Of a DNA stretch of 33,040 bases, positions 30,021 to 32,193 are shown piece by piece. Origin of the DNA: Alphaproteobacteria bacterium (GTDB lineage: Bacteria > Pseudomonadota > Alphaproteobacteria > SMXS01); NCBI GenBank assembly GCA_028284945.1, contig JANQQJ010000027.1:1-33040 (forward strand). The letters are read 5' to 3'. Below the pieces are notes generated by a model. The model ran no database searches, was not told the DNA's origin, and saw only the letters and a program-made list of their open reading frames with translations. Numbering within the stretch: position 1 is the stretch's first letter; every line of letters begins with the position of its first letter. A program made the position numbers and the translations under genes.

Positions 30021-30210
30021 AGTCATCTCCCGTATTCTGTGGCCATGAGGTAGCAGAGCCGGGCCGCGGGGAAAAGGGAGGATATCAGGATGGAATTCTA
30101 TTGGTGTAGTTTCTGGGTGTGCCGTGTGGGTCCGACTGGCAAGTAAGGCGGAGAAACTTTGATATCCCAATTCGCAACAAACATTACTAGGCAATTTGTT
30201 GTCTAGGCTG
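30021..30210. other. Gap between the DUF3126 gene and the reverse transcriptase
   Basis: No gene is seen. The base composition becomes clearly more AT-rich after about 30090. A CAACAAA/TTTGTTG inverted repeat (30175-30181 and 30195-30201) lies 10 bases after the reverse transcriptase stop, with a CTAGGC direct repeat across its right side. Confidence 0.5.
30175..30201 (-). terminator. Possible transcript-end hairpin after the reverse transcriptase
   Basis: On the minus strand CAACAAA and TTTGTTG pair perfectly around 13 bases, starting 10 bases after the stop. There is no strong U-run, so termination is uncertain. Confidence 0.25.
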
Positions 30211-31692
30211 TCACTTTGTGTGTGCAACAATCCGTTTCTTACTGGGGCCCTTCTTTCGCCGTTCTAGTGCGCGCATAAGCTCCATTTTCGCGCGGTTTAG
30301 GATGATTTCTTTATGCCCCGATATCTGATGAGTAATGCCCTGGCCAAGTGGTTCCATCAATTTCGTAGCGCGGTTTGCGTAAGTCCAAAAAGTCCAATTT
30401 CTATAGTCTTGGTATTTTTCCTCAAATCGCTCTACCCGTCCGAATGCCTTAACCAACTCTTCCAAGTTCATTTTCGTCCAAAGGTCTGCCAGATCCTTAT
30501 CTGGATAACGGCGTGCGACTGACACAGCCTCTCTTCGAGCGCGTCTTGCTACCTTCCGATACAGGTTCGACATTGTACGGTCGCGTAGATAGACCTTTCG
30601 ACCGTCAAATCGAAACCCTAGGTACTCAAGGCCGTCTGGGCCGTTGTCACCAGAAGGTCGTGTACTACCTTGCTGGCCATGATTGACTTCAAAACTGAGA
30701 ATGTCGGTCTTTGAGCTGTTAATTCTGATTTCGTCACCGTACTCTTCGATTTCATCAGATACCTTAGACGCAAACGCTTCGGCGGACTTTGGCGATATTG
30801 GAAGGACGAAAAGCAAGTCGTCGGAGTAGCGCCAGTAATGGCCGCCTAACTCGGAAGCAGTCCTGTGAGCCCAAGTGTCGAAGTCGATTAGGTACAGGTT
30901 GGCCAGCAAGTCTGAAATTGGGGCGCCCTGAGGAATGCCGTAGGGCTTGTGGTTTTGCTGGATCAGTGACTTTTGACCGTCCCCACCCGCAACAATGTTG
31001 CGAAACTCCTTTCCCGTGCAAAGCAGTTTCGGAATCTGTCCGAGCGGCGTAACGAACCCCTCTACGGTTTTGCCTGATCTTGTGCGCCACTTTGGTGCAA
31101 TGTGCCCTAAGCGGCGATAAAGTTCGTCTTGCATGACGAAGGCGTAAGTAGTGACAGCCTTGAAGACTTGAAAATGGTCGGGGGGCAGTTTCGCTTCGCC
31201 CAACAACTTGCACCAGAGCGATTTGAGTCTCCGATGGTCGAGCTTCTCGAAGTACTTGCTAATGTCCAGCGATATTGTCGCGCAGTCCCCAAGCTCGCGT
31301 ATGCGTTCAAATGCATCATACGCGAAATGAATATTTGATTTTCCACCAGTGCAATCGGATAGCGGGATTGATCGGTACGCAAGGACACAGTCTTGTAGGC
31401 CTCTATCGCGAAGTTCGGCTTCGTAGAGATTCGATAAAGTGGAGCGATAGCGGGCAAAGATCGCAGCGTCCCGATGAGCCGCATAGCGGAGTTTCCTGCT
31501 CTTTGGTTTACCCTGTTCGCCTTTTTGTGCGAACTTGTTCCAGCTCTGGTCGAAGCGTATAAACGGAAAAAACGGATGCTTTGCGACCTGATCCGGGTCA
31601 TTTGCGAGTGCCGCGGCGGCATCGGCAGTGAGCACTGGGTCAAAGTGGGGATACTGCTTTAAATCGCGTTCCCTAGGTTGCCATTCCTCCAA
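30211..31692 (-). CDS. Reverse transcriptase, probable antiviral (DRT/UG-Abi type)
   Basis: The 493-residue protein has a full RT palm: motif A with L-D-I-S-K-Y-F-E-K-L-D-H (catalytic Asp143), motif B G-I-P-Q-G-A-P-I-S-D-L-L-A-N (252 on), motif C R-Y-S-D-D-L-L-F (YSDD 289-292), a K-T-D-I-L-S-F motif D region, and L-E-Y-L-G-F motif E (355 on), then a basic, Trp/Arg-rich helical C-terminus. The N-terminus (H-P-F-F-P-F-I-R, R-Y-A-A-H-R-D-A-A-I-F) has the pattern I associate with defence-associated DRT enzymes. No maturase domain, retron NAxxH motif or DGR S-Q motif is seen. Start: TTG at 31692 is preferred because AAGGAGGG lies nine bases upstream; GTG at 31758 is the alternative. No partner protein gene is adjacent. 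Codon use is visibly more AT-rich than in its neighbours, suggesting transfer. Type (DRT2-, DRT9-like or other) is inference. Confidence 0.88.
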   Translation of the reverse strand: MEEWQPRERDLKQYPHFDPVLTADAAAALANDPDQVAKHPFFPFIRFDQSWNKFAQKGEQGKPKSRKLRYAAHRDAAIFARYRSTLSNLYEAELRDRGLQDCVLAYRSIPLSDCTGGKSNIHFAYDAFERIRELGDCATISLDISKYFEKLDHRRLKSLWCKLLGEAKLPPDHFQVFKAVTTYAFVMQDELYRRLGHIAPKWRTRSGKTVEGFVTPLGQIPKLLCTGKEFRNIVAGGDGQKSLIQQNHKPYGIPQGAPISDLLANLYLIDFDTWAHRTASELGGHYWRYSDDLLFVLPISPKSAEAFASKVSDEIEEYGDEIRINSSKTDILSFEVNHGQQGSTRPSGDNGPDGLEYLGFRFDGRKVYLRDRTMSNLYRKVARRARREAVSVARRYPDKDLADLWTKMNLEELVKAFGRVERFEEKYQDYRNWTFWTYANRATKLMEPLGQGITHQISGHKEIILNRAKMELMRALERRKKGPSKKRIVAHTK

Positions 31693-32038
31693 TTCTTTTG
31701 GCCCTCCTTCGAGAGGGGGCGGCGAACACCGGTGCCTCCGGTTATGCCACCGCCCCACACTGCTATTACGAGGTTCTTGCGGACCTCTGGATCGGCATCT
31801 TCTATCGACCTAACGGTATATAATGTCTTGAGAGCGCTTGGCGCTCCTTACATCCGGCAGCAACGAGGAATTGCGGAGATCACTATGGACCTACTCATGC
31901 AACTCGCCGAAGTCATATTCGGAGTTGACAGTTACAACCGTGTCTCCGTGCCCCCAAAACGCGAGCGCCATCGTGCACGGATATCGTCCGATTAAATCCG
32001 ACGATCAACTCGAGGTGGTGATGCTTTCAAATACTTCA
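31693..32038 (-). ncRNA. Candidate structured non-coding RNA / leader upstream of the reverse transcriptase
   Basis: Between a putative promoter (about 32073-32045) and the reverse transcriptase there are some 346 bases without a convincing gene but with a series of hairpins on the minus-strand transcript. These are ATCGTC/GACGAT with inner GAT/ATC (32005-31983), CGGAG/CTCCG (31948-31920), GAGCGC-CAA-GCGCTC (31846-31832), GAGGT/ACCTC (31787-31770), GGGGCGG/CCGCCCC enclosing ACCGG/CCGGT (31756-31716), and CCCTCT-CGAA-GGAGGG (31717-31702), which hides the ribosome binding site. A template RNA directly upstream of the enzyme is the known layout of DRT2- and DRT9-like systems. Its ends and any cDNA product are unproven. 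Confidence 0.4.
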
Positions 32039-32044
32039 AGATCG

Positions 32045-32074
32045 AAATAATTATTTTTGTCTTTGACGGTCAAA
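32045..32074 (-). promoter_or_regulatory. Putative promoter of the reverse transcriptase leader
   Basis: On the minus strand TTGACC (32073-32068) is followed after 17 bases by TTATTT (32050-32045), inside AAAAATAATTATTT, a strongly AT-rich spot in a GC-rich genome. The -35 overlaps the palindrome TTTGAC-C-GTCAAA (32074-32062). Confidence 0.4.
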
Positions 32075-32091
32075 TGGCAGAAGCATAGCCA
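32063..32091 (+). promoter_or_regulatory. Putative divergent promoter toward the crotonase gene
   Basis: TTGACG (32063-32068) with a weak TAGCCA -10 (32086-32091) after 17 bases. It shares the palindromic -35 region with the reverse transcriptase promoter on the other strand. Confidence 0.25.
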
Positions 32092-32193
32092 GCAAAGAAT
32101 TAGCGTATCGAACCCTTCCGTCGCGTCACCCTTGCCCCGCACGTCAATCTCTTTAAACTGCGCGTCCTTACGTCAGGGGAGAGTGGGGCAGCT

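What the first reader, a model, noticed from the sequence alone, without database searches (positions are those of the whole stretch)
30040..32160. Stand-alone reverse transcriptase module, probable antiviral DRT system
One 493-residue RT with YSDD lies in a visibly AT-richer segment between core genes (DUF3126 and a crotonase). It has no maturase domain, no retron NAxxH motif, no DGR motif and no partner gene, but it has a long structured upstream region. That is the layout of DRT2/DRT9-like phage-defence systems, in which an upstream RNA is the template. The exact type could be new.
Basis: partly seen in the sequence, partly recalled or inferred. Interest (0 to 1): 0.8.

Follow-up and report, generated by a model that had tools for sequence, protein, structure and literature searches.

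The report
Divergent DRT2 defence with hidden neo
This stretch encodes an anti-phage system of the DRT2 type, in which a reverse transcriptase is predicted to copy part of a neighbouring RNA over and over into a repetitive hidden gene; it belongs to a poorly described, mostly alphaproteobacterial branch in which the copying loop closes on a different short signal from the one in the studied Klebsiella system.

Summary
In detail: a 493-aa stand-alone reverse transcriptase (30211-31692, minus strand, YSDD) lies in a lower-GC segment between DUF3126 and a crotonase, with a conserved RNA upstream and no partner gene. It is DRT2, not a new type: PADLOC Drt2 445 bits; best PDB fold is the Klebsiella DRT2 RT (TM 0.87). 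It belongs to a divergent clade whose tested members fall below NCBIfam's Drt2 cut-off. I decoded the upstream RNA: it holds a 129-nt template unit (31938-31810). When the reverse-complement unit is joined head to tail, the junction rebuilds a perfect sigma-70 promoter (TTGACA-N17-TATAAT), and one frame, with Shine-Dalgarno and ATG, has no stop: a 43-aa hydrophobic Neo repeat. Without selecting on frame, 39 of 42 related loci with exact motifs show the same; 1.29 Mb of control sequence gave no exact hit. Tower, buttress and pseudoknot covary. Differences from Klebsiella DRT2: the jump repeat is GT (CT in one subclade) 8 nt before the -35 complement, not ACA at 6 nt, and the Neo start lies further downstream. 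The 2024 preprint found Neo hard to annotate in divergent DRT2 clades; here it is visible. All mechanistic steps are inferred from sequence.

The parts
30211..31692 (-). DRT2-family reverse transcriptase, 493 aa, TTG start, YSDD active site (30828-30817)
31693..31973 (-). Inferred ncRNA, about 280 nt: 5' handle, template, pseudoknotted 3' scaffold; ends are inferred, not mapped
   Evidence: promoter position and conserved blocks, covariation; the Klebsiella RNA is 280 nt
31980..32008 (-). Candidate promoter of ncRNA and RT: TTGATC, 17 nt, GATATC
   Evidence: read from sequence; homologues have CTTGAA/CTTGTG-like boxes at the same place; the strict consensus scan does not score it
31810..31938 (-). 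Template unit, 129 nt; its reverse complement, concatenated, is the neo gene repeat (43 codons, stop-free)
31937..31938 (-). Jump motif copy 1 (GT, within GGT 31939-31937)
31808..31809 (-). Jump motif copy 2 (GT, within GGT 31810-31808), exactly 129 nt downstream
31925..31930 (+). -35 element TTGACA of the neo promoter (out of order on the chromosome)
31819..31824 (+). -10 element TATAAT of the neo promoter; 17 nt from the -35 only across the repeat junction
31875..31887 (+). neo Shine-Dalgarno GGAG (31875-31878) and start codon ATG (31885-31887), in the stop-free frame
31885..31938 (+). First 18 codons of Neo (MDLLMQLAEVIFGVDSYN), then the junction to 31810 and endless 43-aa repeats
31794..31797 (-). 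Pseudoknot strand 1 (TGCC)
   Evidence: position comparable to the Klebsiella pseudoknot, which starts 7 nt after the template end
31733..31736 (-). Pseudoknot strand 2 (GGCA) in the tower loop
31770..31787 (-). Buttress-like hairpin GAGG..CCTC
31716..31756 (-). Tower-like hairpin GGGGCGGTGG..TCGCCGCCCC

Best explanation
A DRT2 anti-phage system of a divergent, mainly alphaproteobacterial clade. The RT binds an upstream ncRNA of about 280 nt. On phage infection it copies the 129-nt template (31938-31810), its nascent 3' end re-pairs from GT-1 to GT-2 (in Klebsiella from ACA-1 to ACA-2), and synthesis restarts, giving head-to-tail repeats. Made double-stranded, each junction rebuilds TTGACA-N17-TATAAT, which drives an mRNA whose ATG opens a never-ending ORF: MDLLMQLAEVIFGVDSYN followed by 43-aa hydrophobic Neo repeats that stop host growth (abortive infection). 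Shown here: RT family and fold; conserved RNA scaffold with covariation; unit length divisible by three, stop-free frame, promoter, Shine-Dalgarno/ATG, and conserved duplicated GT. Inferred by homology: RNA ends and priming, phage trigger, second-strand synthesis, Neo toxicity, defence.
For: RT: PADLOC Drt2 445 bits, next family 63; PDB profile match to 9c0i E 2.7e-87 against 8e-9 or weaker for other RTs; AlphaFold model pLDDT 91, best fold 9c0i TMt 0.87. Template: exactly one exact-motif hit on both strands of the 33-kb window, and it is this one. Without selecting on jump motif or frame, 42 homologous loci have exact TGTCAA/ANTATA at the expected place and 39 give a unit divisible by three and stop-free in the same promoter-linked frame; shuffled interiors are open in only 27% (window) or 33% (mean) even with the length fixed. 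In 1.29 Mb of control sequence the relaxed rule hits 46 times, 20% open, and the exact rule never. The bases at -8 and -7 are the same in both copies in 86% and 91% of cases against 5-59% at other offsets; in the Rhizobium/Devosia subclade both copies read CT. Neo GRAVY mean +0.64 against -0.58 for the other two frames, p 2e-26. Shine-Dalgarno plus in-frame ATG at a nearly fixed place in most loci. Pseudoknot pairing own 859.5 against permuted 684 +- 17, 0 of 5000; 14 of 16 tower/buttress pairs have compensatory changes. Positive control: Vibrio and other Klebsiella-like DRT2 give ACA at -6 and 120/111-nt open units with the same search.
Against: No experiment. Substitutions in neo between close relatives show no third-position excess (309/387/352), so the amino-acid sequence is not under detectable purifying selection; only hydrophobic character is. 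Three loci (L032, L070, L072) with exact motifs give unit lengths not divisible by three, and a good part of the clade's loci needed a relaxed -10 or -35 or were not resolved. The jump homology is only 2-3 nt. All clade members scored against NCBIfam Drt2 fall below its curated cut-off.
Confidence: 0.88

Rival explanations
1. A DRT2-related RT whose RNA is copied repetitively but whose cDNA acts as DNA, not as a gene (DRT9-like repeat or homopolymer DNA toxicity); the open frame is incidental.
For: Neo amino-acid sequence is not conserved; DRT9 is the next best fold.
Against: Unit length divisible by three with the same frame open in 39 of 42 loci, hydrophobic bias of that frame only, in-frame Shine-Dalgarno/ATG and rebuilt promoter; Drt9 profile only 41 bits.
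Confidence: 0.06
2. A retron or group II intron RT with a structured upstream RNA (msd or ribozyme).
For: RT core matches both profile sets weakly.
Against: Retron 42 of 235 bits, group II 62 of 300 bits; no Rfam ribozyme or retron hit; fold and tree place it with DRT2.
Confidence: 0.01
3. A decayed, non-functional DRT2 locus.
For: A homologue (L003) has a frameshifted RT.
Against: In the window the RT is intact with all catalytic residues, promoter hexamers are perfect consensus, the neo frame is open and scaffold pairs are kept.
Confidence: 0.04

Closest known systems
Klebsiella pneumoniae DRT2 (Wilkinson 2024 PMC12039810; Tang 2024 PMC11100668; PDB 9c0i)
   Same: Stand-alone RT with about 280-nt upstream RNA: 5' handle, template near 120 nt, tower, buttress, pseudoknot just after the template; rebuilt -35/-10 across the repeat junction with 17-bp spacing; stop-free hydrophobic Neo.
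   Different: RT 493 against 425 aa, 29% identical in the structural alignment; jump motif GT at -8 instead of ACA at -6; unit 129 nt (clade mostly 96-150) against 111-129; neo Shine-Dalgarno about 50 nt after the -10 instead of 13; below the NCBIfam Drt2 cut-off.
DRT2 of Azospirillum brasilense plasmids (L007, L008) and the rest of the clade (L002, L009, L011-L083)
   Same: Same clade (SH-aLRT 98), same GT or CT jump motif, same scaffold and Neo pattern.
   Different: Neo amino-acid sequences differ; unit length varies.
DRT9 (PDB 9vma, 9nlv)
   Same: Class 2 UG RT with structured template RNA; second-best fold.
   Different: DRT9 copies a poly-U tract into poly-dA and is protein-primed; no such tract was seen here, Drt9 profile 41 bits.

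Membership tests
DRT2 | RT of the Drt2 family by profile, fold and tree | tested here: met
   PADLOC PDLC03757 445 bits; 9c0i E 7e-36, TMt 0.87; tree: beside Klebsiella-like gammaproteobacterial DRT2
DRT2 | Score above the curated cut-off of NCBIfam Drt2 (a naming threshold, 390 bits) | tested here: not met
   367 bits; four other clade members 337-355; Vibrio DRT2 516. A naming threshold rather than a biological feature: claimed here as a divergent DRT2 clade, not as an NCBIfam equivalog
DRT2 | Intact YxDD catalytic motif | tested here: met
   YSDD; R288, Y289, D291, D292 invariant in 37 proteins
DRT2 | Upstream ncRNA with tower, buttress and pseudoknot | tested here: met
DRT2 | Template flanked by ACA-1/ACA-2 (described for close Klebsiella homologues) | tested here: not met
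   GT (or CT) at -8 instead; ACA at -6 found in the gammaproteobacterial controls
DRT2 | Repeat unit divisible by three with a stop-free frame across the junction | tested here: met
   129 nt, 43 codons
DRT2 | Sigma-70 promoter rebuilt across the junction | tested here: met
   TTGACA-N17-TATAAT
DRT2 | Concatemeric cDNA on phage infection, Neo toxicity, abortive infection | not testable with these tools
   needs experiments
DRT9 | Drt9 RT profile and poly-U template | tested here: not met
   41 bits; no poly-U tract seen in the template or scaffold sequence
Retron | Retron RT profile, msr/msd | tested here: not met
   42 of 235 bits; no Rfam hit
Group II intron | Maturase profile, ribozyme | tested here: not met
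   62 of 300 bits; no Rfam hit

The most novel reading that the evidence does not exclude
A large DRT2 clade, probably without annotated Neo so far, keeps the hidden-gene mechanism but closes its reverse-transcription loop on a 2-nt repeat (GT, switched to CT on both sides in one subclade) shifted by 2 nt relative to ACA, so RNA structure rather than extended sequence homology sets the jump; two loci of a still deeper clade (L005, L108) look the same, which would make GT the older state and ACA the derived one.
Probability: 0.5. Interest if true: 0.65.

Novelty: new variant of a known kind. Interest (0 to 1): 0.58.

Why it matters
[quoted passage not shown] This locus and its relatives indicate that for one large divergent clade the mechanism looks the same and that only the jump signal and the translation start differ. 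This makes the rule for template jumping, and what Neo needs to be toxic (hydrophobicity rather than a set sequence), directly testable with about 60 natural variants. It also gives a simple sequence rule for finding Neo genes that gene finders cannot see.

Tried and rejected
Rfam gathering scan: only a tRNA. MFE of the whole upstream RNA: z -1.2, not convincing. Scans of viral and genome contigs with the single protein found no relative; the four-protein alignment found 259 relatives, 80 kept. An automatic choice of jump motif by longest shared k-mer picked chance matches at -17 in the Rhodobacterales group; the fixed -8 position, set from the first five loci, replaced it and was then checked without that requirement. 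Codon-position test for selection on Neo: no third-position excess. Search for a partner gene: only recombinase-like ORFs recur, in 8 loci at varying positions. Direct repeats around the insertion: none. The consensus promoter scan does not pick the ncRNA promoter. Outgroup DRT2 loci L102-L107 gave no clean neo with the simple rule.

Full report
What is there. The minus-strand ORF 30211-31758 (515 aa) has its likely start at the TTG of 31692 (493 aa), behind AAGGAGG; the Azospirillum homologue starts with ATG at the matching residue. YSDD is present and the motif's R, Y and both D are invariant in 37 homologues. GC falls to 50-53% against about 58%. Neighbours are DUF3126 and an enoyl-CoA hydratase. 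The RT is missing from the nine family relatives searched, while the hydratase is present in eight of them. In one relative, the gene upstream of the hydratase is a TetR-like regulator instead (name from the sequence, not scanned), so the locus sits at a break in gene order.

Which RT. PADLOC Drt2 445 bits, next 63. NCBIfam Drt2 367 bits, below its cut-off of 390; four other members of the clade score 337-355, a Klebsiella-like Vibrio protein 516. PDB profile search: Klebsiella DRT2 E 2.7e-87, other RTs 8e-9 or weaker. The AlphaFold model (mean pLDDT 90.8) matches 9c0i at E 7e-36, TM 0.87 by target length; DRT9 follows at 1e-11. In a quick tree of 88 proteins the window lies in a clade of 73 rows (SH-aLRT 98), mainly Alphaproteobacteria, beside the Klebsiella-like gammaproteobacterial group; its nearest rows come from Telmatospirillum, Rhodospirillales and Azospirillum.

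The RNA. Upstream sequences of five loci share TGTCAA and, about 100 nt later, A(T/G)TATA. These are the reverse complements of -35 and -10 boxes in the wrong order, as in Klebsiella DRT2. Requiring the 17-bp spacing across a repeat junction gives unit lengths 129 (window), 132, 141, 120 and 123, all divisible by three, and in all five the same frame of the reverse complement is stop-free. A dinucleotide GT lies 8 nt before TGTCAA and again one unit later.

Statistics. With 80 further loci, exact motifs at the expected place occur in 42 clade loci; 39 give a unit divisible by three and open in the same frame, without selection on frame or jump motif. The relaxed rule, which requires the duplicated GT or CT, finds 63 loci, 60 of them conforming. 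Under shuffling of the interior, 27% (window) and 33% (mean) stay open even with the length fixed. In 1.29 Mb of flanking sequence, both strands, the relaxed rule hits 46 times with 9 open, and the exact rule never; in the window the only exact hit is this one. Loci are related, so these counts are not independent, but units differ in length and sequence. Identity between the two copies peaks at -8 and -7 (86% and 91%) and is 5-59% elsewhere. In the Devosia/Rhizobium/Agrobacterium subclade both copies are CT, most simply one joint change.

Neo. In the window the junction gives TTGACA-GTTACAACCTAACGGTA-TATAAT, a perfect consensus. GGAG with ATG lies in the open frame (31875-31887), at a nearly fixed distance before the -35 in most loci. 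The product would be MDLLMQLAEVIFGVDSYN, then repeats of LTVYNVLRALGAPYIRQQRGIAEITMDLLMQLAEVIFGVDSYN. Mean hydropathy of the Neo frame over 60 loci is +0.64, against -0.58 for the other two frames. Substitutions show no third-position excess: the frame stays open and hydrophobic but its sequence drifts. This matches the published remark on hydrophobic bias without a known domain.

Scaffold. Tower and buttress hairpins: 14 of 16 pairs have compensatory changes over 25 sequences. A pseudoknot between the linker after GT-2 and the tower loop: summed pairing score 859.5 against 684 +- 17 when partners are exchanged among loci, none of 5000 permutations reaching it. In the window itself this helix is short (4 bp TGCC/GGCA at the conserved place; the scoring script preferred another register). 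In Klebsiella the pseudoknot strand begins at base 155 and the template ends at 148, a similar spacing. Single-sequence folding is weak support. A candidate promoter at 32008-31980 would put the RNA start near 31973 and its length near 280 nt; neither end is mapped.

Controls. The same search on Vibrio, Marinomonas and a gammaproteobacterial genome finds ACA at -6 and open units of 120 or 111 nt, as published. So the method recovers the known case, and the difference in jump motif is not an artefact of it. Two loci of a deeper clade (L108, L005) also show GT at -8 with open, hydrophobic units of 129 and 120 nt; this was not pursued, and the third (L004) did not conform.

Limits. Nothing was tested in cells. 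The RNA ends, the primer, the phage trigger, second-strand synthesis and toxicity are taken over from the Klebsiella system. I could read the preprint but not the supplements or final version of Tang 2024, so prior annotation of this clade's Neo cannot be excluded; searches of the open literature found none.

Noticed in passing
L004 of the same clade did not conform.
   Followed up: partly
L003 1016-2337: A homologue in genome G361 has its RT split by a frameshift, yet its 123-nt neo unit is still open: recent decay or a sequencing error.
   Followed up: no
L027, L034, L035, L069, L071: Subclade in which both copies of the jump dinucleotide read CT instead of GT.
   Followed up: partly
L070, L072, L032: Exact promoter motifs but unit lengths of 130, 142 and 127 nt, not divisible by three; a different junction, decay or a wrong -10 choice.
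   Followed up: no
L022, L050, L065: Contigs labelled Solirubrobacterales or Acidobacteria carry this mainly alphaproteobacterial RT clade; horizontal transfer or binning error.
   Followed up: no
L020, L027, L036, L038, L044, L083, L102, L106: Recombinase-like ORFs near DRT2 in eight loci, at varying positions.
   Followed up: no
31678-31995 (+): The antisense of the ncRNA is open on the chromosome for 105 aa because of the neo frame; similar antisense ORFs in 14 homologous loci cluster as a spurious 'conserved gene'.
   Followed up: yes
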